Below are positions 8,349 to 33,784 of a DNA stretch of 64,000 nucleotides, piece after piece (the first letter of the stretch is position 1; each line of letters begins with the position of its first letter). This DNA is from a virus. The DNA lies in the IMG/VR virus record IMGVR_UViG_3300028821_000038, positions 62,001 through 126,000 of that record. One strand, written 5' to 3'. Position numbers and translations under genes: made by a program. Under the pieces are notes generated by a model. That model was not told where the DNA came from and did not search any database. It saw only the letters and a list, made by a program, of their open reading frames with translations.

Positions 8349-11300
8349 ATGTCTTTCAAGAAATTAAGTAGGCCATATAAGGAAACAGATGAACATGTAA
8401 AGGCAAAGTTGCTAGAAACTCTTTCAAATATGTTTCCAATACAAGGAAATTTTTTCACACTAAAAGCAACAAATTTTGCCATAAAAAAATCCGACCCATC
8501 TATGACTGATATAAAAAATGCCCTCATCAAGGGTTCCTCTTTGATGTCATCAGTTGTCGCGGATGTATCTTTGATTAATAACAATACAAAGAAGGTGATC
8601 GATAAAAAGAGAATGACAATCATGAGGGTGCCTGATTTCACAAAGAAGGGCTCTTTTATTGTTGACGGTAACTCATATACGGTTCCGTATCAGCAAAGGC
8701 TTAAGCCTGGCGTCTATACTATGATAAAGAGAAATGGCCAAACAGAATCCATGTTTAACCTTGCAAAAGGACGAAATTTCTCTATAAAAATAGACGAAAG
8801 TGGTATTTTTAGGATAAAAATAGGAACATCTCATGTGTATTTATACTCTATATTGCATGACTTGGGCATTCCAGATAGCGAAATTGTAAACTACATTGGG
8901 AAAAACCTCCTGGAGGTGAACAAAAAACACTATCACTCTTCGGATTCTGCAAAGTTTATAAAGCAATTCACATATAATGCTTCTTCTCATGATATTGGAA
9001 GCATCCAGGACGCTCTCAAGCATACCTCTGTAGATAAAAGTGTGGTAAAAAATACTCTTGGGGTTGAGTCACCTCATGTGGACCCTATTATGATTCTTCG
9101 TGCAGCCCAAAAGCTAAAAAATGTTAAATTTGGGAAAGAAGAGGAGGATGACAGGGAGAATCTTGTCTATAAAAAGATAATGACCCCGGAAGACATCATA
9201 TCCGAGTCTTTCGACAAGCTTGCCAAAGATGCAGTAAATAAACTCAAATTCAAACTAAGCAACCCATCCACCGAGAACCTATCTGATGTTTTTAGGGGAG
9301 GAAGTGGCTTGCTCACTAAGCCAATAAAGACATTTTTGACTTCATCTAAAATATCCAGGCTTAGTGAGGAATATAATCCACTAATGATGCATTCAGTAAA
9401 GCATCTGCTTACCCCTATGGGAGAAGGAGGGGTTGGTGATACACGGGCATTGAACCTGGATACAAAAGCTGTTCACCAAAGTCACTTAGGCTTTATAGAC
9501 CCGATAGCATCTCCAGAAGGAGCTAGTGTCGGAATTACTCTTTCTGTGACAGATAATGCCTATGTTGATGAGCATGGAAACCCAGCTATTGGAGTCATCA
9601 ATGCAAAAACTGGCAAGCGTGAAATTAAGAAAGTGTCTGATTTGTGGGATAAAAAACTAGCCTACCCAATTTCACCAGAAAAGGCCAAAAAGGGCGGTAT
9701 TGTAGTAAGATACAAAGACAAGGATATTATTGCAAAAAGCAAGAAAGATGTTGATTATATAATACCAAAAGATACAGATATTCACTCCCCATCTCTCAAT
9801 ATGGTTCCACTTGTAAACTCTTCAGACGCAAACAGAACCAATATGGCGCAAAAACATTTACAGCAGGCTCTATCGCTAAAAGAAAGAGAGGCACCAATTG
9901 TATCTGTAAAGAGCGGTAGCGACGATATGGCTGCAAAGCTTGTAAAAGATATGGAACTTCTTCCTCGCGCCCCTATAGATGGCGTTGTCACCAAGATAGC
10001 CAACGAGTATATATATATCAAAAATGGAAAAAATCTTGTAAAAGTTGATTATGTTACAAACATGCCGCTTGCGAGAAAAACATATTTGACACACTATCTG
10101 AAAGTTAAAGTGGGGGATAGAGTAAGAAAGGGCCAGATTTTAGCAGAATCAAACTACTCTAAAGACGGAAAGCTTGCGCTTGGAAAAAACCTAAGAACAG
10201 CATGGCTCTCGATGCCAGGAAACAGAAACGATGGAATAATAATCTCTGAAACAGCAGCAAAGGAACTATCATCCCTTCATATGTACAAAGAGGTTGTGGA
10301 TATCCCTCATGATTCTGTATTGGACAGAGAGAGATTTAGGAAGCTGTTTCCAGATATCGCTGCAAAATGGGGTATAGAGAACTATGATGAGCATGGTGTT
10401 ATAAAGAAGGGGACTATTTTAAAGTTCAAGCAACCCCTTGTTCTGAAAATGGCTAGGACTGATGCAAAAGAGATAAAATCAAAACTCGGAAAGGTAGTTC
10501 ACAAGCCTTATAAGGCAGTATTAAATATATGGAAGCACGAAAAAGATGGCGAAGTTATAGATGTTGAGAATAATGGAGCAGAAATACGCATTTCTGTTAA
10601 AACAGAGAGTGAAATGAAAATAGGTGATAAGCTCTCTGGAAGGCAAGGTAATAAGGGTATAGTAACTAAAATACTACCAGATGACCAGATGCCTGTTAAT
10701 ACCAAAGGTGAGCCTGTTCATGTACTGATGACTTCAGCGGGAGTTATCAGTCGTACAAATAGTGGTTCCCTTATAGAGGCCGGTCTTGGTAAAGTTGGAG
10801 ACAAGGCAGGCAAGACATACACTATTGGTCACTATGAAAAAGATGACAACTTGAAGTTTTTGGAAAGCGAAGCCAAAAAGCACAAAGTGGACCTATATGA
10901 AACACTTATAAATCCTGAGACAGGAAAACCATTTCCGCAGAAGATATTTGTAGGGAAGCCCTACATACTAAAGCTATTTAAGGATTCAGAGTCTGGAATG
11001 AGTGCTGTTGGTGTGGGTGCTACCGACATTAATGAACAACCCCTCAAAGGCGGAAATACTTCAGCTGCATCCATATCTGGAATGGAGGTGAATGGTTTAC
11101 TTGCTCATGGTGCCAAAGACTTTTTAAGGGAAGCCAAGCATATCAAAGGGCAAAAAAACGATGACTTTTTCCATGCCTTTAGAACAGGAAGCCCATTGCC
11201 GCCGCCAAAGGAGCATTTTGCAACAGAAAAATTCAAAGCATATCTGAGGCAGATCAATATCAATCCTATTGCAGACAAGCATACAAAAGAGTTCTCTTTG

Positions 11301-12671
11301 ATGCCAATGACAGACAAAGAAGTGGTTAAGATGTCATCTGGGGCAATCAAAAATACCGAAACAGTTGCCGCAAAAAATATGAAAGTTGTAAAAGGCGGAC
11401 TCTTTGATGAGAGCATCTTTGGTGGCCCCCAGGGTACAAGATATGGCCACATAAATCTTCCTATGAAGATATTGAATCCTTTATATAAAGAGCAGGTAGC
11501 TGGTTTACTTGGCGTTTCCGCAGGAAAGCTAATAGATGAAGTCAATCATAATGGGTTTGACGATATCGAGAAACGGATATCAAGTATAGATGTAGACAAA
11601 AAACTAAAGCAATTGAAGTATGAGTCTAAAAATACATCTAATCAGCAGCTCATAAATAAAAACATAAAACAAATCAAGTTTCTTGAGAAGATCAAAAATT
11701 CTGGTCACAAGCTGAAAGATGCAGTATTTATCTCAAAAATCCCAGTGATTCCTCCCGTATATCGCCCTATTGCCAAGGGGATGGATGGCTCAGTTACCGT
11801 TAATGATTTAAATATGTTCTACCAAGATATCGGAATGCTCTCTGATGCTATTAAGCACTCTGGGAAAATAAGCGGAGGTACAAAAAAAGAACTATCGAAA
11901 GACCTATATCACACTGTTGGCGCCTTATATGGAGTAGAAGAGACTCCCAATAAGAAGTTGAAAAATAAACAAATTAAAGGGGTTTTGGATATTCTAGGAG
12001 GAGAGACTCCAAAAAAATCATATATCCATAAAACCATGCTCAGGTCTAAGCAGTTTATGAGTGGAAGGGGAGTTATAAAGCCTGCTCGAAACGATATCGC
12101 CCTTGATGAGATAGAAATTCCTGAAAAAATGGGACTCGAGATGTATAGCCCTCATATTCAAAGGAATTTGGCCAGAAGAGGATATTCCCCAATAGAGGCA
12201 AAAGAGTTGATTGAAAATAGAGATCCAAGAGCTATCGAAACTCTTCATGAGATAGGAAAGCATATTCCTGTTGTGTACAACCGTGCTCCTACGCTATGGA
12301 AACACAATATACTAGGGGGGTATCCAAAGTTCATCAAAGGTAGCACAATCGGCATCAATCCTCTAGTCGAAAGAGCCATGAATGCCGATTACGATGGTGA
12401 TACTGTTTCAGTACATGTCCCCTTGACTGATAAGGCGATCCATGATGTAAAAACTAAAATAATGCCAAGTAAAGCATTGTTTACCGAGGAGAAGGGGTAT
12501 CACGATCCAGATGTTTTGTACCTGCCTAACCAAGATGCAACCCTTGGAATATATAAGGCGTCTTTAAAATCCAGAAAACCCGTTAAGAGGGTAAAAAATA
12601 TAGATGAATTGAAACACAAGATTGCATCAGGAGAAATAAACTATAACGATAAGGTGATAGTGACAAGCTAA
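8349..12671 (+). CDS. Fused RNA polymerase beta and N-terminal beta-prime subunit
   Basis: The 1440-residue protein joins a beta-like part (about 1-970) to the N-terminal half of beta-prime (about 975-1440). Beta landmarks: SPEGASVG at 388, a LALGKNL segment, and GDKLSGRQGNKG at 759-770, matching the bacterial GDKMAGRHGNKG. Beta-prime landmarks: GGLFDESIFGGP, the SGRGVIKPAR loop, YNRAPTLWKHNI, and the catalytic NADYDGD at 1345-1351, whose three aspartates hold magnesium. The beta-prime zinc ribbon is absent: the chain goes from IFGGP directly to GHINLP. It ends soon after LPNQDATLGIYKAS, so the bridge helix and trigger loop are missing and must be encoded by another gene not in this window. 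The enzyme would transcribe phage genes independently of host polymerase. The ATG follows AGGAAG. Confidence 0.92.
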   Translation: MSFKKLSRPYKETDEHVKAKLLETLSNMFPIQGNFFTLKATNFAIKKSDPSMTDIKNALIKGSSLMSSVVADVSLINNNTKKVIDKKRMTIMRVPDFTKKGSFIVDGNSYTVPYQQRLKPGVYTMIKRNGQTESMFNLAKGRNFSIKIDESGIFRIKIGTSHVYLYSILHDLGIPDSEIVNYIGKNLLEVNKKHYHSSDSAKFIKQFTYNASSHDIGSIQDALKHTSVDKSVVKNTLGVESPHVDPIMILRAAQKLKNVKFGKEEEDDRENLVYKKIMTPEDIISESFDKLAKDAVNKLKFKLSNPSTENLSDVFRGGSGLLTKPIKTFLTSSKISRLSEEYNPLMMHSVKHLLTPMGEGGVGDTRALNLDTKAVHQSHLGFIDPIASPEGASVGITLSVTDNAYVDEHGNPAIGVINAKTGKREIKKVSDLWDKKLAYPISPEKAKKGGIVVRYKDKDIIAKSKKDVDYIIPKDTDIHSPSLNMVPLVNSSDANRTNMAQKHLQQALSLKEREAPIVSVKSGSDDMAAKLVKDMELLPRAPIDGVVTKIANEYIYIKNGKNLVKVDYVTNMPLARKTYLTHYLKVKVGDRVRKGQILAESNYSKDGKLALGKNLRTAWLSMPGNRNDGIIISETAAKELSSLHMYKEVVDIPHDSVLDRERFRKLFPDIAAKWGIENYDEHGVIKKGTILKFKQPLVLKMARTDAKEIKSKLGKVVHKPYKAVLNIWKHEKDGEVIDVENNGAEIRISVKTESEMKIGDKLSGRQGNKGIVTKILPDDQMPVNTKGEPVHVLMTSAGVISRTNSGSLIEAGLGKVGDKAGKTYTIGHYEKDDNLKFLESEAKKHKVDLYETLINPETGKPFPQKIFVGKPYILKLFKDSESGMSAVGVGATDINEQPLKGGNTSAASISGMEVNGLLAHGAKDFLREAKHIKGQKNDDFFHAFRTGSPLPPPKEHFATEKFKAYLRQININPIADKHTKEFSLMPMTDKEVVKMSSGAIKNTETVAAKNMKVVKGGLFDESIFGGPQGTRYGHINLPMKILNPLYKEQVAGLLGVSAGKLIDEVNHNGFDDIEKRISSIDVDKKLKQLKYESKNTSNQQLINKNIKQIKFLEKIKNSGHKLKDAVFISKIPVIPPVYRPIAKGMDGSVTVNDLNMFYQDIGMLSDAIKHSGKISGGTKKELSKDLYHTVGALYGVEETPNKKLKNKQIKGVLDILGGETPKKSYIHKTMLRSKQFMSGRGVIKPARNDIALDEIEIPEKMGLEMYSPHIQRNLARRGYSPIEAKELIENRDPRAIETLHEIGKHIPVVYNRAPTLWKHNILGGYPKFIKGSTIGINPLVERAMNADYDGDTVSVHVPLTDKAIHDVKTKIMPSKALFTEEKGYHDPDVLYLPNQDATLGIYKASLKSRKPVKRVKNIDELKHKIASGEINYNDKVIVTS

Positions 12672-25736: not shown

Positions 25737-25877
25737 TCTATCAAGCTTCCCAATTCATGTGCTGGATGTGCGTTCCAGCCGAAAGATGGCGAAGCGTATC
25801 CTATGTACTGTGTAGATTGCGCTAGATTCTACACAGACAAATGGGTAGGAGTCTGGGAAGATAAGGAGGAAGAATGA
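25626..25877 (+). CDS. Small four-cysteine protein (83 aa)
   Basis: The 83-residue product has C45 and C48 (SCAGC) and C62 and C65 (YCVDC), which form a probable zinc site, after a beta-rich start (GQELVLEEKVVLLGVID). AGGAG precedes the first ATG closely; ATG 25632 is an alternative. It overlaps the start of the rIIA-like gene by four bases (ATGA). Zinc binding is inferred from the CxxC pairs; the partner is unknown. Confidence 0.6.
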   Translation: MQMLYPIIKTKKEISPNMIGQELVLEEKVVLLGVIDDSIKLPNSCAGCAFQPKDGEAYPMYCVDCARFYTDKWVGVWEDKEEE

Positions 25878-27997
25878 GAATAGATGGCAAAAGTAAAGTA
25901 TCAACAAACATATCAGGGGCAAAAGATTTTGATATAAACCCAACCCCTGAGATGTTTATGCTGCTCTCATCCGGCCTGTATCAAGACAAGATAAAAGCCG
26001 TGATTAGAGAGCTTTCTGCAAATGCTTTTGACGCGATGGTTAGCAATGGAACTATCAAAGAGAAGGCATTCGATGTTATTGGCCCTACCGAAAAAGATCC
26101 CGTATTTAGAATCAGGGACTATGGGCCAGGCTTGTCGGAGGATGAAATATATGCCCTGTATACGAAATATGGGGCTAGTAGCAAAAATGACACCAATAGC
26201 ATGATAGGTGCATTTGGTGTTGGCTCGAAATCACCTTTTGCATACACTATGCAGTTTACCGTCACAAGTTTTAACGGAGGAATAAAGAGTGTCTACTTGG
26301 CATATGTAGACGACGGCATTCCCCGTGTAAAAAAAATATCATCTGAACCCAGCAACGAGCCATCTGGGTTGATGGTAGAGGTTGGTGTATTTAGCAAAGA
26401 TATATCTACCTTCAATTCCAAAATATCAGATGTGATATCGTGGATGGACTTCCCCGGTCCAATACCAGAAGGTATTTGGAAAGATAGGAGGAAGGTGATA
26501 TCCATCCTAAAAGAAAAGGGATACTACACATTTCTATATAAACTCGATGGTCTGTATGTCTACTGTGGAGGAATAGTATACTCAGTTGACAAAGATGGCC
26601 TTGACGAGGATATCCTAGAGATGATAGACACCAATAGTGTGGTTTTGTATGCCCCAATTGGTAGTGTATCCATTGCTGCATCCAGAGAGTCAGTAGCGAT
26701 GGATAGCAGAACTTCACACTATATCCATAACACGCTGCGAAAAATAAAGAACGGTATCGTGTCTCACATAAAAGATGTGATATCTGATTCCGACAGCGTA
26801 GTCACGGCAGCCAAAAAAATATACGGAATGGTGGTGAAATATTCATCTGTAGACTTAAGCAAAAGAGATGCTATATTTCTCCATGTTTTAAAGACAGAAG
26901 TGCTCAATATGCTAAAAAATAGATTTAAATATGTTGAGCAACATTATAGACATCATAACAACGTCAATGCCTTGGTGTTTTTGTCACTTAGCGCAAGTGA
27001 CCCAAAAATATTATTTGCTGATTGGATGACTGTCTATCGTGAGTATAATGGTATGCCAAGTAACGCTATGTTGGTTATTGCCAACTCCAGGCATAGAATC
27101 AGACAAATAAGCACATTTTATGCCAATGAGCATGACTACGATTGTGTTATCGTGGTAGACCATGAAAAATATGAGGAGGAAAAAGAAAAAATATGTACGC
27201 TATTTGGCCACGACAATATATTTAATCAAAAATTCCTTCTGGAGTATTATAGAAACAATTCTCCAGATCTGAAAAACACTGCATCATCAGAGTTCGAGAC
27301 ACCAACAAGCAACCAGAAGTTTTATAGGTTTAAGGGGGAAAGTATGTCGTCGTTCTCGATGACTAAACTTCCAAAGGATAAAAAAATAATAGCCTTCAAA
27401 ACCAATCATACTGTAAACCATCAAGTATGGAGGATTATTGTGAGGTGGTTTAAAAGGTTTTTTGATGATAATGTAGATACTGTAGTACTTCCTAAGAGCA
27501 AATATCACATAGTTGACGACAATGAAAATGTGATATGGGCACACGATTACTTTAAAGAGAAGATTGGAACAAAAAAGTCGATTACTTTAGAGATAACACC
27601 CAGTGAGTATTTGATACACAATATATACTTCTTCTTATCACTCATTAGAGGTTTGACATATCGGGAGTACATTGAAAACAAAAGAATATCTATTATTCTT
27701 AATGCTGCCTCTAAAATGTATACAGAATCAAAATATCTGAGGAGTGACACAGAAAAAATCGAGGAGGTGTATAGTGCGATTTTTAATACTAAAATAAACA
27801 TAAAGCTCAAGCTGGACAGGAAGTATGTTTTTGTAAAAAACATGGTGGCCGAAATAAACTTTAAAGAGGTGATAACACACCAAAATGCTCTGGAGATTCT
27901 GGAGTACATATACAGCGGCACTTATCCTGTTTACAGTGCTGAAAAATTTGAAAAAATACTGAAAGGAAGAGAGGATGTTTCCTTTTATATTAAATAG
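25874..27997 (+). CDS. rIIA: rIIA-like GHKL-fold ATPase
   Basis: The 707-residue protein carries a GHKL ATP-binding site as in T4 rIIA. The N box is ELSANAFDA (E46, N50, D53), the G1 box RDYGPGLS (D82, G84, G86), and the G2 box GAFGVGSKS (G112, G115, G117). The length is close to T4 rIIA (about 725). rIIA and rIIB are membrane-associated early proteins that, in T4, protect the infected cell against the lambda Rex exclusion system and influence lysis timing. The rIIB-like gene follows and overlaps by 23 bases, as expected for a pair acting together. The C-terminal 400 residues are less conserved. Confidence 0.88.
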   Translation: MRIDGKSKVSTNISGAKDFDINPTPEMFMLLSSGLYQDKIKAVIRELSANAFDAMVSNGTIKEKAFDVIGPTEKDPVFRIRDYGPGLSEDEIYALYTKYGASSKNDTNSMIGAFGVGSKSPFAYTMQFTVTSFNGGIKSVYLAYVDDGIPRVKKISSEPSNEPSGLMVEVGVFSKDISTFNSKISDVISWMDFPGPIPEGIWKDRRKVISILKEKGYYTFLYKLDGLYVYCGGIVYSVDKDGLDEDILEMIDTNSVVLYAPIGSVSIAASRESVAMDSRTSHYIHNTLRKIKNGIVSHIKDVISDSDSVVTAAKKIYGMVVKYSSVDLSKRDAIFLHVLKTEVLNMLKNRFKYVEQHYRHHNNVNALVFLSLSASDPKILFADWMTVYREYNGMPSNAMLVIANSRHRIRQISTFYANEHDYDCVIVVDHEKYEEEKEKICTLFGHDNIFNQKFLLEYYRNNSPDLKNTASSEFETPTSNQKFYRFKGESMSSFSMTKLPKDKKIIAFKTNHTVNHQVWRIIVRWFKRFFDDNVDTVVLPKSKYHIVDDNENVIWAHDYFKEKIGTKKSITLEITPSEYLIHNIYFFLSLIRGLTYREYIENKRISIILNAASKMYTESKYLRSDTEKIEEVYSAIFNTKINIKLKLDRKYVFVKNMVAEINFKEVITHQNALEILEYIYSGTYPVYSAEKFEKILKGREDVSFYIK

Positions 27998-29063
27998 TGA
28001 TTCGTTAACAATTGTGGAGGGCGGAAGAGTCCACACTATCATGTCGGATAATCCAAAATTCGACGAGGTGATCTCTTCGCTCACCACTGGAAATGAAGAA
28101 GAGGTTCTGGAGGCTATAAACGACGCATATAAGATAGACAAGTTTCTTGGCAAAAAATGTGTCGTCAAGGATGACTCTTTGTATTATGATGGGTTGGAGC
28201 TGCATGGCGCCATCATAGAAAGAGCAAAAAGCTTCATAAAGAAGGATATCCCTGTAGATCCGCTTCTCAGATTTATAGAGAAGCTCATGATGAATGAGGA
28301 TTTGGAGTCAGTAAAGGATCTGTATAGGTTCTTGGAGCACAACAAGCTTCCTATCACAAGTTCCGGGAACTTTCTTGCCTATAAAAAGGTAAAGAATAAT
28401 TACCGAGACTTTCATTCAGGGATGAATGATAACAGTGTGGGGAGTATCGTGAAGATGAACCGCCATAATGTTACGAAAGATAGAAATATCACTTGTTCAA
28501 CCGGACTTCACTTCGCGTCATATCAGTATGTAAAAAACTTTATGCGTGACGGCCGCATGGTTGTACTGGAGATAAATCCTGCGGATGTGGTAAGCATACC
28601 CGTCGATTATAACAACGCAAAAGGGCGATGTTGCAAATATAAAGTCGTAGGAGAGCTCCAAAAATTAGATAGAGATGTCCTTGGTGGGAAAGATTATATA
28701 TCGGAAATCAAAAGGGACGGCTCGGTAGTGTTCGACTTTGATTTTGAAGCGAAAAATCCCATAGAGGAGGCTATCAATATATCGCAAAGTGAGGTCTTGG
28801 CGTATATGCTAAAAGACCCGACTAAGCCAGAATTTACATTTGATGGCGAACTTGGCATGATTGTCCCTAATATCAAATATTGTTATATAGATAAAGGGAA
28901 GTATCGGGTCAATAAGAAGTTTAAAGGCAAAAACTATGAACTTGGTCGGTTTGACAATTTTAAGGCGGCTCGTTCGGTTGTATATGAGTTGTGCCGCGCT
29001 ATAGTAGATGGCAAAAAAGAAGAGTTTATTGAAGAATATATGAAGAGCAAGGATAAAAAATGA
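27975..29063 (+). CDS. rIIB: rIIB-like protein with AP2-like C-terminal domain
   Basis: The 362-residue product matches rIIB in its middle: FLEHNKLPITSSGNFLAYKK, DFHSGMNDNSVGSIVKM, and CSTGLHFASYQYVKNF followed by VVLEINPADVVSIP. It is longer than T4 rIIB (312). About residues 300-342 add GKYRVNKKFKGKNYELGRFD with the AP2-like pattern of three short strands and a helix (NFKAARSVVYE). AP2 domains bind DNA in phage integrases and homing endonucleases. This fused DNA-binding-like tail is unusual. The ATG overlaps the rIIA end behind AGAGG. Function with rIIA in exclusion resistance is taken from T4. Confidence 0.85.
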   Translation: MFPFILNSDSLTIVEGGRVHTIMSDNPKFDEVISSLTTGNEEEVLEAINDAYKIDKFLGKKCVVKDDSLYYDGLELHGAIIERAKSFIKKDIPVDPLLRFIEKLMMNEDLESVKDLYRFLEHNKLPITSSGNFLAYKKVKNNYRDFHSGMNDNSVGSIVKMNRHNVTKDRNITCSTGLHFASYQYVKNFMRDGRMVVLEINPADVVSIPVDYNNAKGRCCKYKVVGELQKLDRDVLGGKDYISEIKRDGSVVFDFDFEAKNPIEEAINISQSEVLAYMLKDPTKPEFTFDGELGMIVPNIKYCYIDKGKYRVNKKFKGKNYELGRFDNFKAARSVVYELCRAIVDGKKEEFIEEYMKSKDKK

Positions 29064-29362
29064 CTCCTAATGAAGTGTTTAGGAAGGTATACAATCACAA
29101 AACAAACTTCTTAACCCCTTGGGTTATATATAGGGGTAAGGAGGGGGTTTACTATTATGAGCTCAGCACGTCTAATGATGGATACAACCCAGACAACAAC
29201 TTGTATGGGGTAACCATCATAGATGCAAGGAATATGGAGCCAAGAAAAGATTTATCTACTGCATTCTTCAGTAGGAAAGATGCTGAGGAATACATCGAAA
29301 AGATAAAAGAAGAAGGACGAAAATTATACAAGGAGGAGAAGGATGAGCGAAATCAGACATGA
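29060..29362 (+). CDS. Unknown protein (100 aa)
   Basis: The ATG overlaps the stop of the rIIB-like gene (ATGA). The 100-residue product has beta segments (PWVIYRGKEGVYYYELST) and a charged C-terminal helix (FSRKDAEEYIEKIKEEGRKL), a pattern common in small phage proteins that carry a strand-turn-helix ending. It overlaps the next gene by 20 bases. No family is recognised. Confidence 0.6.
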   Translation: MTPNEVFRKVYNHKTNFLTPWVIYRGKEGVYYYELSTSNDGYNPDNNLYGVTIIDARNMEPRKDLSTAFFSRKDAEEYIEKIKEEGRKLYKEEKDERNQT

Positions 29363-29675
29363 GCTAAAGCCCTTTTTGGGCAAGGAAATAACAATTTCTG
29401 GAACAGTTCTTCAGTATATACCGCATAGCGAAAAAAGTAGCCTCCCTAAGATTCTTGTTGGGAGTGCATATGTATGTGGTACAGAGGTGAGGCTCCATCA
29501 TCTCTGGTTCACCCCTAAAAAGACAAAACCAAGAAGGGGTGATGTCATTGAGATAACTGGCGTGGTGGGCCAGTACCCATCGATAGACTGCAATGGAAAC
29601 CGCATATGTAAATACGGGTTCTCGAAAATAAAAAACAGCAAGGTGGTGCTAAGAAAGGAGGAGATTCATACTTGA
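29343..29675 (+). CDS. Putative OB-fold protein (110 aa)
   Basis: The 110-residue protein starts after AAGGAGGAG and looks all-beta: GKEITISGTVLQYIPH, LPKILVGSAYV, VRLHHLWF, then RGDVIEITGVVGQYPS, and a Lys-rich end. The order and the GDVIEITGVV strand suggest an OB-like barrel such as those binding nucleic acid or oligosaccharide. This is a fold guess from pattern only. It ends the block driven by motif copy 3; a broken small gene follows. Confidence 0.55.
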   Translation: MSEIRHELKPFLGKEITISGTVLQYIPHSEKSSLPKILVGSAYVCGTEVRLHHLWFTPKKTKPRRGDVIEITGVVGQYPSIDCNGNRICKYGFSKIKNSKVVLRKEEIHT

Positions 29676-29942: not shown

Positions 29943-30101
29943 ATGGCAGTAGACGCTAAAGAGGCAACCACGGTTGCCACGGCAATACTGGAAACGGTAT
30001 TGTCAAAGCTCGGTGACGAGCAGAAACAAAAAGAGTTCGCGGAGAAGGCAGAAGCCGTATCCGCTCAAAATGTAGAGGTTGCAGGAAAGTCTGGAATGTA
30101 A
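29943..30101 (+). CDS. Small helical protein heading the JAMM/E1-like operon (52 aa)
   Basis: ATG 29943 has GGAG six bases upstream. The 52-residue product (MAVDAKEATTVATAILETVL at the start, ending VEVAGKSGM) looks like a single long helix with a short tail. It is the first gene after promoter motif copy 4 and is followed by a hairpin with a U-run (30113-30148). The small protein should therefore be made in excess over the enzymes downstream. This is the arrangement expected for a modifier, substrate or adaptor, but it has no beta-grasp pattern and no C-terminal Gly-Gly, so it is not an evident ubiquitin-like protein. Confidence 0.6.
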   Translation: MAVDAKEATTVATAILETVLSKLGDEQKQKEFAEKAEAVSAQNVEVAGKSGM

Positions 30102-30112
30102 CCTCTCATTAC

Positions 30113-30148
30113 AGGAGGGGGATGACATCCTTCTCCTACTATTTTTTT
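30113..30148 (+). terminator. Hairpin with U-run inside the JAMM/E1-like operon (attenuator)
   Basis: AGGAGGGGGA pairs with TCCTTCTCCT (two G-U pairs) around a short loop, followed by ACTA and seven T. It lies between the 52-residue gene and the JAMM gene and probably reduces transcription into the enzyme genes. Confidence 0.6.
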
Positions 30149-30163
30149 AGATAAGGAGAAAGC

Positions 30164-31261
30164 GTGAAGCAGAAAATGAAAAAGACAACAAAGAAAACCA
30201 GAAAGAATATTGAGAGGCCCATAGAAAAAGTCAATATCAAAAATCTTGGCGTTCTGATAATAACAAGGAGTAAGTTATCAGAAATTTGGGATATTGTCAA
30301 AGATAAAGTAGGGAGCAATGAGTTCCAAATACATTATCATTCCGTTACATTCAAATGTTCCAAAGATGGAAGTGATATGTATTTGGTTATCCCTACGGCT
30401 TTTTATACATTCCCGCAGAACATATCCTCTATACTTATAGAATATAAAATGAGTGATATCGAACCTGCGAGCAAAAAGGTTTTAGATATTCACAACAAGG
30501 TAATGCAAAAGATGCATATAGTTGAAGAGTATCTGAATCTTTTGAAGATTTTTGATTCTGTAACACCCATGAGTGTGTTCGACAATAGTCTCCATCGACA
30601 TCCTCATGAGTTTGGGTTCTCAAATATCGATCTGGATAACGATCCAGAAAACCCCGGAATCATATTCAGGAAGAAAAAAGCCCAAAATTATCCACAAATG
30701 GATAGTGTGATGTATTTTGGGAGAAATAACTCATCTATCGTTACCTCCGAATTAAGGTTGGTTACAGTGAAGCCAACAAAAGATGGAGGGATTGAAGGGG
30801 AGTATGTCGAGTGCCCCACTGTCACCATAATAGATCCAAAAAAACAATATGGAATGGAGAGTGTTTTTGGGATCAGGGATGAGAAGTATCCTCATTCTAA
30901 TTTGTGTCAGGTAAAGTATGATATGTCAATAATATCACCCATTATGGCAAGCATACTGCCGAATATAGAATGGGGAGTAACTACCGGCATCAAGCCTCAA
31001 TTCATAGAGACAATAAAAGAAAGAGCCATACCGGCAAATAATTTTTCTAGTATCTTATGGGACGAGGATGAGTTGTGGACGGGAGATAGTCTGGTTCCAG
31101 ATACCAATCTCGAGCTTGAGGCAAAAGAGAGGATTGCTCTAATGTCGGAAGAGGAGATAGCCATGATGAAAAGCATGGGTTTTGACGCCAAAATACCTAC
31201 AGATGTCATAGAGTTCTATGACTACGAGTTGCAAATTCTTACAAGGGGGGCTAAAGAATGA
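30164..31261 (+). CDS. JAMM/JAB-domain putative isopeptidase-like protein (365 aa)
   Basis: The start is GTG 30164 after AAGGAG. The 365-residue product contains SLHRHPHEFGFSNID, which fits the JAMM metal site H-x-H-P...S-x-x-D: H144, H146, P147, S153, D156. An upstream helix-strand region could supply the glutamate. JAMM enzymes cut isopeptide or peptide bonds after ubiquitin-like proteins or trim their precursors. The N-terminus is a Lys/Arg-rich tail. The next gene, overlapping by ATGA, encodes an E1-like protein, and this pairing is the hallmark of bacterial ubiquitin-like and PRTRC cassettes. Function is inferred from the motif and pairing; activity is not proven. Confidence 0.72.
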   Translation: MKQKMKKTTKKTRKNIERPIEKVNIKNLGVLIITRSKLSEIWDIVKDKVGSNEFQIHYHSVTFKCSKDGSDMYLVIPTAFYTFPQNISSILIEYKMSDIEPASKKVLDIHNKVMQKMHIVEEYLNLLKIFDSVTPMSVFDNSLHRHPHEFGFSNIDLDNDPENPGIIFRKKKAQNYPQMDSVMYFGRNNSSIVTSELRLVTVKPTKDGGIEGEYVECPTVTIIDPKKQYGMESVFGIRDEKYPHSNLCQVKYDMSIISPIMASILPNIEWGVTTGIKPQFIETIKERAIPANNFSSILWDEDELWTGDSLVPDTNLELEAKERIALMSEEEIAMMKSMGFDAKIPTDVIEFYDYELQILTRGAKE

Positions 31262-32196
31262 TATCTGCACTCTATGAAGAGCGATTAGAAAGAAAATACA
31301 TTAAGAAAGCGCCTTTTGAGGATGGGGCGCTGCCATTTCTCTATTTCGCCGATACCAACATCCTTCAGGATGTCCCACTATTAAATCTAAATGCCCCTAT
31401 TTTAATGCCAAACAAGTATCAAGTAGACAGGAATAAAACATATCTGGAGTTACTGAAAGGGATACATAAAAATGCCCAGATTTATTTCCCGCATGAGGAA
31501 ATTCCAGATATGACAGATGACCTAGTTGTAGGCTTGGGAAGTAGGCTAATAGAGGTACTAAACTCATACAACTATATATATGTAATTGGGATTGGTGGCT
31601 ACATGGCAAATATGTTATTTATGATGGATTTATTGTATAGAGTAGGAACAAAAGTCAAGTATAGACCCATTACACAAATAAGATGTTATGATGGGGACAC
31701 GATTACTGCAGATAACATATGTAGAATACTGATTCCTGTTTATAAATATACTTCCAAGGGTATGTCTATGGCATCATATTTTTTGTCAGATATGTCGTCT
31801 TGTTCGACGGAGATGATGTATTTGCCTAAGATATTACAGGCTAATGCACTGGAGATGCCAATCACTACCCGTGGGCATTATTGTGCTCCGACCAGTTTGC
31901 CAGTTGGAACAAACAATACAAACCTCTTTATTGGTTCCCCTGACCTCAAAACAAGGCGGGAACTTTTCGATATAGGCTTTAATTTCATATTCTTTGGGCA
32001 TCATGGGTACCAAACCCAGATGGTGTACCGTCCACTCCCGGATAGCGATATGGCCGTAGAGACTTATGGTCGTATGGATATAAATGCATTTTATGCAGGC
32101 ATCTATATGACATTGCTCAAATTTTTAGAGATTGAGCATCCGATTTTATATCACGATGGCAAGATAATTGCTACATTTAATGCAACAAGGCTTTAG
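31258..32196 (+). CDS. ThiF/E1-like adenylyltransferase (312 aa)
   Basis: The 312-residue product has the E1-superfamily nucleotide site: YVIGIGGYMANMLFMMDLL with G111, G113, G114, then CYDGDTITADNICR with D145, D147, N153 and R156, and SPDLKTRREL with D229 and R233. These match the GxGGxG, D-x-D...N..R and D...R motifs by which E1/ThiF proteins bind ATP and adenylate the C-terminus of a ubiquitin-like or sulfur-carrier protein. PRTRC ThiF proteins carry a very similar DGDTV motif. A catalytic cysteine is not certain; C186/C202-region cysteines are candidates. The gene overlaps the JAMM gene (ATGA) and precedes the 373-residue gene. Confidence 0.78.
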   Translation: MISALYEERLERKYIKKAPFEDGALPFLYFADTNILQDVPLLNLNAPILMPNKYQVDRNKTYLELLKGIHKNAQIYFPHEEIPDMTDDLVVGLGSRLIEVLNSYNYIYVIGIGGYMANMLFMMDLLYRVGTKVKYRPITQIRCYDGDTITADNICRILIPVYKYTSKGMSMASYFLSDMSSCSTEMMYLPKILQANALEMPITTRGHYCAPTSLPVGTNNTNLFIGSPDLKTRRELFDIGFNFIFFGHHGYQTQMVYRPLPDSDMAVETYGRMDINAFYAGIYMTLLKFLEIEHPILYHDGKIIATFNATRL

Positions 32197-32204
32197 GAAC
32201 ACAC

Positions 32205-33326
32205 ATGGGACAAATAAATTTCAATGTATTCAATAAGACAGGAGTCGATGATGACTTTTGCAAGAAAATCATCAAAAATGGGCTGGATTTTCCCATCTTG
32301 GACGATATATCCACATCGGATATTTTGGCGGGATACACCGCTGTTTGGCAGAACACTATAAATGATATATTCAACGATGTTTCTAAAAATATTGGCTTCA
32401 GTAAGTATAACATATGTTACGAAGCTAGTGATGAAGCAATCGACGAATACGATTTAATTGGTGAAGTCAACATAGAAAACATTGAAGGCTATTTCTACAT
32501 AACGAAATATGATAAGCTAGATGTCATCGGGCATATCGAACTTTCGTCATGCATAAAAATAAACGACCAAAGTGATCTCAATACAACGATGGTGTTTATT
32601 GAGGCAATGGTTGAAAAAAATGAATTATACGGAATTTTGCTGACTGATGGTGTAGGAAATTTCTTGAATCCAGCACATCCGATTGTGGCTAAAAGGGTGA
32701 GAGAGGTTGGGATAGAGTATTTCTTCAACAAGCCATTTAAGATTATTGTATATGCCTGGCGCAAAACAGCAACAAGCGCTGGGCGTTTTACCAATATGTA
32801 TACATTAACACCGCTCTCTAGACCGATAACGGAGCCGGTGATGAAAATAAAAAGTGCAAGTAATGCGGTAAGCATATTTAAGCCATATTCCAAGCACCCT
32901 TTAAAAAATGTCCATGTAGACATCAACATAAATGACAGGAAGCTGTGTGACAATTATGTGGTGGTGCCAGTGCAAGTTGCACAGTATAAGGGAATCGTAT
33001 ATCCCTGGTATGGTGCCGTAGCCAGGGAAATTGGGGCAAAAACGGGGTTTAATATTGGCCCGATGTTATCCCCAAATATATCTAGTGAGTTTTCCGAATG
33101 TGAGTGTGATATGGAAAGGATATCATATACTCTGGATAATTCCGGTTTTAGCTCACTGCCGTTTGATGTCTGTACTGGCTCATATCCTGTAGCATCTATA
33201 GAGGGGTTTGCTACCTTAAATGTTGCAAATTTTGATTCTCCATACCACAGTAACGCCTGCAATATGGATCCTGTATTCATAAAGACTGCAATGGCTAAAC
33301 AGTCACTGGAGATTTTGAGGTCATGA
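32205..33326 (+). CDS. Partner protein of the JAMM/E1-like pair, unknown (373 aa)
   Basis: The 373-residue product starts after TAGGAA. It is alpha/beta with long beta stretches (LIGEVNIENIEGYFYITKYD, NYVVVPVQVAQYKGIVYPWY). Two segments loosely recall an E2 active-site region, SKHPLKNVHVDININDRKLC and SPYHSNACNMD, since E2 proteins have HPN followed by the catalytic Cys. The spacing does not fit the standard HPN-x-G-x-x-C form, so this is only a hint. Its place, between the E1-like gene and RNase HI in a coupled operon, suggests it works with the pair, for example as a conjugation factor or target. Confidence 0.55.
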   Translation: MGQINFNVFNKTGVDDDFCKKIIKNGLDFPILDDISTSDILAGYTAVWQNTINDIFNDVSKNIGFSKYNICYEASDEAIDEYDLIGEVNIENIEGYFYITKYDKLDVIGHIELSSCIKINDQSDLNTTMVFIEAMVEKNELYGILLTDGVGNFLNPAHPIVAKRVREVGIEYFFNKPFKIIVYAWRKTATSAGRFTNMYTLTPLSRPITEPVMKIKSASNAVSIFKPYSKHPLKNVHVDININDRKLCDNYVVVPVQVAQYKGIVYPWYGAVAREIGAKTGFNIGPMLSPNISSEFSECECDMERISYTLDNSGFSSLPFDVCTGSYPVASIEGFATLNVANFDSPYHSNACNMDPVFIKTAMAKQSLEILRS

Positions 33327-33784
33327 AAGAGGTAGAGATATACACAGACGGAGCATGCGATGTGCACCAGACCAAGACAGGTGGATGGTGCGCGATAGTT
33401 ATATATGGCGACCTAAAGAAGATCATAAGTGGAGGTGCTAAAAACACTACCAATAACCAAATGGAACTCACGGCGGTAATAGAGGGACTAGAGATTCTCA
33501 AAGAGCCATGCCGTATAAAGATATACAGTGACTCCAGATATGTAATAGACGCCATAAATTCACGCCTAAAGAATTGGGTACTGAGAGGCCTGGATGAGAA
33601 TTACCTAAACCCAGACCTATGGCGCAGATACATATTCACTGCATATCCCCATGAGGTTGAAGGAATATGGATTAGGGGCCACAATGGAAACAAACTAAAT
33701 GAGGAGTGCGATGCGATAGCAAAGAAAGAGATAAAGAAACTAAAAGGACGAAACACCCAAAGCTCTGCTCCATTCGACATATAA
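33323..33784 (+). CDS. rnhA: Ribonuclease HI
   Basis: The 153-residue protein is a complete RNase HI. It starts EIYTDGACD (D9), has NNQMELTAVIEGL (E48), IKIYSDSRYVIDAI (D70), IRGHNGN with H120, and a NEECDAIAK segment with D130, so all catalytic residues are present. The enzyme cuts RNA in RNA-DNA hybrids, removing primers and R-loops, and phages use it in replication. The ATG overlaps the stop of the 373-residue gene (ATGA), placing it on the same transcript as the JAMM/E1-like genes. A hairpin at 33801 follows. Confidence 0.93.
   Translation: MKEVEIYTDGACDVHQTKTGGWCAIVIYGDLKKIISGGAKNTTNNQMELTAVIEGLEILKEPCRIKIYSDSRYVIDAINSRLKNWVLRGLDENYLNPDLWRRYIFTAYPHEVEGIWIRGHNGNKLNEECDAIAKKEIKKLKGRNTQSSAPFDI

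What the first reader, a model, noticed from the sequence alone, without database searches (positions are those of the whole stretch)
29943..33326. JAMM protease plus ThiF/E1-like gene operon: possible phage ubiquitin-like or PRTRC-type system
Seen: H-x-H-P...S-x-x-D JAMM site (H144, H146, S153, D156) in 30164-31261; GxGGx, DGD...N..R and D...R motifs of E1/ThiF in 31258-32196; all genes overlapping or nearly so, with a 52-residue protein first and a 373-residue protein last. Known: JAMM plus E1 pairing marks bacterial ubiquitin-like, CBASS Cap2/Cap3, Bil and PRTRC cassettes. Inference: the phage carries a protein-conjugation or processing system under an early-type promoter. The modifier is not evident: the 52-residue protein lacks a Gly-Gly end, and the third protein has only a loose E2 resemblance.
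Basis: partly seen in the sequence, partly recalled or inferred. Interest (0 to 1): 0.88.

Follow-up and report, generated by a model that had tools for sequence, protein, structure and literature searches.

The report
Phage's diverged ubiquitin-style protein-tagging operon
A large bacterial virus carries a small gene set that looks like a heavily drifted bacterial version of the ubiquitin system (an activating enzyme, a probable tag-removing protease, perhaps a tag-transferring enzyme); distant cousins of the virus carry the standard form of the same set, so viruses may run their own protein tagging, but the tag has not been found.

Summary
31258-32196 is an E1/ThiF-type protein: PRTRC-ThiF profiles rank it first among the phage's ORFs, no shuffle reaches its score, and eight of the ten residues invariant in 27 PRTRC E1s are kept. 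30164-31261 is probably a JAMM protease: E53, P77, H144, H146, S153 and D156 match invariant PRTRC-A residues and it sits directly upstream of the E1 gene, as in 68 of 75 PRTRC-type loci. But sequence profiles barely see it, its metal loop is one residue short, and the only supportive structure model used relatives as input. The third gene (373 aa) carries a PRTRC-B-like signature CxG...FDSxYH (Cys323, His348), as a motif only. The modifier is unproven; the 52-aa gene is a separate unit followed by a terminator-like hairpin. The proteins have no sequence relative in the collections searched and the nearest related phage lacks the operon. However, five distant members of the same phage clade carry PRTRC cassettes (Ubl, E2, JAMM, E1) beside terminase. 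Best reading: a strongly diverged PRTRC-like (Iyer type 6d) conjugation/deconjugation operon whose E1 has lost the family's conserved Cys. New variant of a known kind; function untested.

The parts
29943..30101 (+). 52-aa small protein, ends ...VAGKSGM; candidate (unproven) modifier or unrelated small protein
   Evidence: own Shine-Dalgarno AAAGGAG; not found by the PRTRC-C (Ubl) profile; ends AGKSG+M, compare AGTKG ends of phage PRTRC-C
30113..30137 (+). intrinsic-terminator-like hairpin (11 pairs, loop 3) followed by a T run, between the 52-aa gene and the JAMM gene
   Evidence: -15.2 kcal/mol, z -2.5
30164..31261 (+). probable JAMM/JAB (PRTRC-A-like) metalloprotease, 365 aa, extra helical insertion before the HxH strand
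   Evidence: E53, P77, H144, H146, S153, D156 match invariant columns of 20 PRTRC-A; top of 111 own proteins with the clade-A profile, E=0.018; motif statistics; MSA-based AF2 model, pLDDT 61, matches JAMM/MPN structures
30320..30322 (+). E53, candidate JAMM glutamate
30593..30631 (+). HRHPHEFGFSNID, metal-binding motif (H144, H146, S153, D156); spacing HxH-x6-S instead of x7
31258..32196 (+). E1/ThiF-like adenylating enzyme, 312 aa, about 105-aa N-terminal extension
   Evidence: PRTRC-ThiF HMMs: top of 1,430 own ORFs, E 0.015-0.035; 0/1000 shuffles; hhalign E 0.0008-0.0025; PADLOC E1-E2 E=0.041
31588..31956 (+). E1 residues kept: G111, G113, G114, D145, N153, R156, K167, D229, R233; third loop Gly is Met116 and the conserved PSC cysteine is absent
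32205..33326 (+). 373-aa protein, candidate E2-like (PRTRC-B-like) domain at its C-terminus: C323-T-G ... F-D-S-P-Y-H348
   Evidence: motif in 9 of 3,479 background ORFs and 8 of 41 PRTRC-B; hhalign in register but not significant, E=0.12, rank 8 of 111
33323..33784 (+). RNase HI, last gene of the same coupled run (4-base overlap)
   Evidence: PF00075 4.7e-33, phrog_531 1.6e-46

Best explanation
A strongly diverged, phage-encoded relative of the PRTRC cassette (Iyer et al. 2006 operon type 6d): JAMM protease, E1-like enzyme and probably an E2-like protein made from one coupled operon with RNase HI. Proposed working: the E1-like protein binds ATP and adenylates the C-terminus of a small modifier (residues shown, reaction inferred). 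Because the conserved cysteine of the family is missing, the activated modifier would pass straight to Cys323 of the 373-aa E2-like protein, or to the substrate, without an E1 thioester (inferred). The JAMM protein would trim the modifier precursor and/or cut it off targets (inferred from its metal site). The operon lies in a variable region next to rIIA/rIIB and RNase H, so targets are perhaps proteins of DNA metabolism or host takeover (weak inference). Per claim: E1-fold adenylating enzyme about 0.85; JAMM about 0.65; E2-like third gene about 0.4; the 52-aa protein as modifier about 0.2; whole reading about 0.6.
For: E1: top own-genome hit for three profile sizes; 0/1000 and 0/100 shuffles; eight of the ten 100%-invariant columns of 27 PRTRC E1s kept; hhalign E=0.00076 against next best 0.025. 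JAMM: (rank 1 of 111 with the clade-A profile), 119+124 (MSA-based model; the top 23 PDB hits are JAMM/MPN or complexes of them: Npl4 MPN, AMSH/sst2, RPN11/RPN8, CSN5, STAMBP, BRCC36). Gene order: JAMM directly upstream of E1 in 68 of 75 comparison loci, several with the same 4-base overlap as here; E2-like gene downstream of the E1 in 24 of 53. Clade context: five phages of the same RNA-polymerase clade carry B-A-ThiF with a Ubl (PRTRC-C) gene nearby, beside terminase. E2: plus the Cys and downstream-His description of type 6d E2s in PMC1779556.
Against: No curated family matches above threshold. No homologue of the three proteins in INPHARED phages, IMG/VR pattern scans, or 30 related records; one genome-contig scan with E1-steered patterns also found none. 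The closest phage (52% RNAP identity, 161 kb) lacks the operon and its neighbours. Generic PRTRC-A and B profiles do not detect the JAMM or 373-aa proteins above shuffles. JAMM loop one residue short; E53 falls in the Glu column only with suitably trimmed inputs (10% of 160 alignment trials). Unaided AF2 of the JAMM protein failed (pLDDT 30.7); the better model used PRTRC-A rows and is partly circular. The E1 lacks the third Gly and the conserved Cys, so the module could be degenerate. No modifier identified.
Confidence: 0.6

Rival explanations
1. Counter-defence: the phage JAMM and a catalytically altered E1 act on host conjugation systems (CBASS Cap2/Cap3, Bil), the JAMM stripping modifiers and the E1-like protein acting as a decoy; there is no phage modifier at all.
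For: No modifier gene found; E1 lacks the conserved Cys; the Cap2-type E1-E2 profile of PADLOC is the nearest curated model (E=0.041); variable location, absent in the nearest phage.
Against: All ATP-site residues of the E1 other than the third Gly are kept, unexpected for a pure decoy; an E2-like motif accompanies it; five clade members encode cassettes with their own Ubl.
Confidence: 0.18
2. Only the E1-like protein is real; the JAMM motif is coincidence and the gene is an unrelated phage protein. The ThiF-like enzyme would act alone, e.g. in adenylation or sulfur-transfer chemistry.
For: Generic PRTRC-A profiles do not find the JAMM protein; loop one residue short; unaided AF2 failed.
Against: Six matching catalytic/structural residues in register, first rank with the clade-A profile, motif rarity, and the position directly upstream of an E1 gene that is nearly universal in this system (68 of 75).
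Confidence: 0.15
3. A decaying remnant of a PRTRC cassette: folds persist but the system no longer conjugates anything.
For: Missing third Gly and Cys in the E1, short JAMM loop, no recognisable Ubl, no homologues.
Against: Three intact, translationally coupled ORFs of 312-373 aa with ribosome-binding sites; catalytic residues otherwise kept. Decay would normally leave frameshifts.
Confidence: 0.07

Closest known systems
PRTRC cassette / operon type 6d of Iyer et al. 2006 (PMC1779556): Ub-like, JAB, E1-like, E2-like, alpha-helical protein
   Same: JAMM gene directly upstream of the E1 gene; E1 adenylation residues; JAMM residue set in register; candidate E2 with Cys and a downstream His; DNA-metabolism neighbours
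   Different: No detectable similarity by standard profiles except the E1 (marginal); no ParB, PRTRC-E or recognisable Ubl beside it; E1 lacks the third Gly of GxGGxG and the PSC Cys; about 105-aa N-terminal extension on the E1; JAMM loop one residue shorter; third gene longer and downstream
Phage PRTRC-type cassettes: Bacillus phage vB_BauM_KLEB27-3 (L114), IMG/VR phages L120-L137, L139, L143, L153, and five phages of this clade (L225-L229)
   Same: phage-encoded, JAMM-E1 adjacency, some with N-extended E1 (L143) or an RNase H-like gene right after (L116, L120, L121)
   Different: those are recognised by PRTRC profiles, mostly keep canonical motifs, and many have an identifiable (often tandem) Ubl gene
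CBASS Cap2 (E1-E2 fusion) and Cap3 (JAMM)
   Same: E1 plus JAMM pairing; PADLOC E1-E2 profile is the nearest curated model (E=0.041)
   Different: no CD-NTase gene seen in the operon, no E1-E2 fusion, separate JAMM gene upstream

Membership tests
E1/ThiF superfamily | GxGGxG nucleotide-binding loop | tested here: inconclusive
   GIGGYM: first three Gly kept, the next replaced by Met116
E1/ThiF superfamily | Asp of D.D, Asn, Arg, Lys and the second Asp of the ATP/Mg site | tested here: met
   D145, N153, R156, K167, D229, R233 all aligned
E1/ThiF superfamily | profile similarity beyond chance | tested here: met
   top own-genome hit E 0.015-0.035; 0/1000 shuffles; hhalign 0.00076, next best own protein 0.025
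PRTRC ThiF (TIGR03736) | curated NCBIfam model above cut-off | tested here: not met
   no NCBIfam hit
PRTRC ThiF | invariant P-S-C cysteine | tested here: not met
   no Cys at the aligned position; 100% conserved in the 27 comparators
JAMM/JAB metalloproteases | E ... HxH-x7-S-x2-D | tested here: inconclusive
   all residues present (E53, H144, H146, S153, D156) but x6 instead of x7
JAMM/JAB metalloproteases | JAB fold | tested here: inconclusive
   AF2 with PRTRC-A rows: pLDDT 61, pTM 0.54, PDB hits JAMM/MPN at E 1e-3 to 0.1; partly circular; unaided AF2 failed
PRTRC / type 6d system | JAMM gene adjacent to E1 gene | tested here: met
   30164-31261 / 31258-32196, 4-base overlap; same order in 68 of 75 comparison loci
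PRTRC / type 6d system | E2-like protein (PRTRC-B) with Cys and downstream His | tested here: inconclusive
   C323 and H348 in p373; motif background 9/3,479; profile not significant
PRTRC / type 6d system | small Ub-like protein (PRTRC-C) | tested here: not met
   no ORF of the phage matches the PRTRC-C profile
PRTRC / type 6d system | ParB-family and PRTRC-E genes alongside | tested here: not met
   the neighbours of the operon are rIIA, rIIB and RNase H; the rest of the phage was not searched for ParB or PRTRC-E
any of these | ATP-dependent activation and conjugation, JAMM deconjugation | not testable with these tools
   needs biochemistry

The most novel reading that the evidence does not exclude
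A phage-borne conjugation pathway with a chemistry of its own: an E1 that adenylates without a thioester cysteine and hands the modifier directly to an E2-like Cys, with a helical, non-beta-grasp 52-aa modifier (ending AGKSG, trimmed of its last Met by the JAMM) made in excess from a separate terminated unit.
Probability: 0.1. Interest if true: 0.85.

Novelty: new variant of a known kind. Interest (0 to 1): 0.55.

Why it matters
No paper on PRTRC-type ubiquitin-like conjugation systems carried by phages turned up in the literature searched; conjugation in bacteria is mainly known as anti-phage defence (CBASS, Bil). Here one phage clade contains both standard PRTRC cassettes, with tandem ubiquitin-like arrays beside the terminase gene, and, in this phage, a diverged E1+JAMM operon that standard annotation leaves without a name. 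If it works, phages tag proteins during infection and the targets can be found by proteomics. If it acts on host systems, it is a new kind of anti-CBASS or anti-Bil factor. Either way the clade gives a clear comparison set.

Tried and rejected
Close relatives of the three proteins: tblastn in INPHARED, IMG/VR pattern scans with the real proteins (8, 12, 13) and with motif-steered query alignments whose extra rows are scrambled variants of the window E1 made only to steer pattern choice (48-49, 87-91), GTDB genomes with the same steered query (92): none. 30 records of RNAP relatives (36-38): none. Pfam/PHROGs/NCBIfam/PADLOC (4-6, 45) and PDB sequences for the E1 and JAMM proteins (43-44): nothing significant. 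A first JAMM alignment (A10) misplaced the N-terminal half and was dropped; trimmed set A11 was used instead. No Rfam hit, no tRNA. 'Early promoter' claim: not supported. Considered and set aside: a generic NAD-binding Rossmann protein for the E1 (the D-G-D..N..R and D...R pattern and the extended profile match argue against it); Pup-type tagging (no PafA-like gene seen, but not searched for specifically).
Full report
The window is part of a 162,314-base IMG/VR virus record. It is a large phage with a 1,440-aa multi-subunit-type RNA polymerase (8349-12671), RecT and exonuclease VIII, rIIA and rIIB homologues and an RNase HI. The operon in question is 30164-33784: 365 aa, 312 aa, 373 aa and RNase HI, with a 4-base overlap, an 8-base gap and a 4-base overlap. 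The 52-aa gene lies upstream with its own Shine-Dalgarno and is followed by a stable hairpin plus T run (30113-30137; -15.2 kcal/mol, z -2.5), so it is a separate unit or a more strongly expressed first gene.

Standard annotation sees nothing: no Pfam, PHROGs, NCBIfam or PADLOC model passes its threshold for the three proteins, the nearest being PADLOC E1-E2 (Cap2) on residues 112-184 of the 312-aa protein, E=0.041. tblastn in 50,697 phage records and pattern scans of IMG/VR and GTDB found no relative.

To test the fold claims I collected PRTRC operons from plasmids, phage-type PRTRC cassettes from Bacillus phage KLEB27-3 and IMG/VR and Firmicutes loci. HMMs of 12, 27 and 72 PRTRC-ThiF sequences rank the 312-aa protein first among 1,430 ORFs of this phage (E 0.015, 0.023, 0.035; next hits 0.4-1.7). 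None of 1,000 shuffles reaches its score. hhalign gives E=0.0015, and 0.00076 with the clade sequences added, against 0.025 for the next own protein. In alignment with 27 PRTRC E1s, ten columns are 100% invariant; the protein keeps eight of them (G111, G113, G114, D145, N153, K167, D229, R233) and loses two (the next loop Gly, here Met116, and the PSC cysteine); R156, 88% conserved, is kept too.

The 365-aa protein is harder. Generic PRTRC-A profiles do not detect it above shuffles. But HxHP..SxxD is expected 0.007 times per shuffled proteome and occurs once in 3,479 other phage ORFs. With domain-trimmed inputs MAFFT places E53, P77, H144, H146, S153 and D156 on columns invariant across 20 PRTRC-A proteins; the Glu column depends on how the inputs are trimmed. 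With a profile of the five clade JAMMs it ranks first of 111 own proteins (E=0.018), aligned in register over the PQxxS...Y segment, though only fifth with the mixed profile. The HxH-to-Ser loop is six residues instead of seven. AF2 alone failed; AF2 with 20 PRTRC-A rows gave pLDDT 61 and Foldseek hits whose leading entries are all JAMM/MPN proteins or complexes of them, which is supportive but partly circular.

The 373-aa protein ends with VCTGSYP...NFDSPYHSN, resembling the PRTRC-B signature CTGx...FDSxFTHxN; type 6d E2s are described as having a conserved Cys and a downstream His (PMC1779556). The motif occurs in 9 of 3,479 background ORFs, and profile support is in register but not significant (E=0.12, rank 8 of 111). 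I treat E2 identity as possible, not shown.

Gene order supports the reading: in 68 of 75 loci with both genes the JAMM gene is directly upstream of the E1 gene, several of them with the same 4-base overlap; the E2-like gene lies upstream in 29 and downstream in 24 (some of these loci are near-identical). Most telling, a ThiF search of 24 records of RNAP relatives found E1 genes in five phages of the same clade, about 30% RNAP identity. They have PRTRC B-A-ThiF and, nearby, a ubiquitin-like PRTRC-C, often in tandem copies ending GTKG, beside the terminase gene. The nearest relative (52% RNAP identity) shows neither these nor the window's operon. So the clade has an association with this system, while this phage carries a diverged version elsewhere in its genome.

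The modifier remains open. No ORF matches PRTRC-C. Most of the PRTRC modifiers seen here end in GxKG or a close variant rather than GG, so lack of Gly-Gly does not exclude the 52-aa protein, which ends AGKSGM; but it looks helical and lacks the first beta-hairpin.

Verdict: E1 real, JAMM probable, E2 possible, modifier unknown; a new, diverged variant of the PRTRC / type 6d kind. Function in the phage is inference.

Noticed in passing
L225-L229 (records of five phages of the same RNAP clade), e.g. L227 6640-7746, L228 12298-12738, L229 7794-8174: Phage PRTRC cassettes beside the terminase gene with tandem ubiquitin-like (PRTRC-C) arrays: five units in L227, two in L228 and L229, each unit ending GTKG.
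   Followed up: partly
L120 and L121, 35-721; also L128 and L131 (cut by the locus end): Four tandem 57-60 aa ubiquitin-like units, each ending AGTKG, upstream of E2-like, JAMM and E1 genes in Bacillus-type phages or plasmids: a natural poly-ubiquitin-like precursor in PRTRC.
   Followed up: partly
L143 1959-5624: Divergent phage cassette: beta-grasp-like 141 aa, E2-like 380 aa, JAMM 359 aa and an E1 with about 145-aa N-terminal extension, the closest match in layout to the window's N-extended E1.
   Followed up: no
L138-L174: A second, separate phage E1+JAMM pairing: short ThiF proteins of about 183-209 aa followed by JAMM proteins of 150-209 aa with HTHPFGxAYFSGTD.
   Followed up: no
window 30113-30137: Strong intrinsic-terminator-like hairpin between the 52-aa gene and the JAMM gene.
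   Followed up: yes
window 25874-29063: rIIA-like (GHKL ATPase) and rIIB-like genes directly upstream, not found in the fetched stretches of the nearest relative.
   Followed up: no
window 29343-29675: 110-aa protein with an OB-fold-like sequence pattern next to the operon; Bacillus PRTRC loci L116/L120 also carry a small OB-like protein next to an RNase H-like gene after the E1.
   Followed up: no
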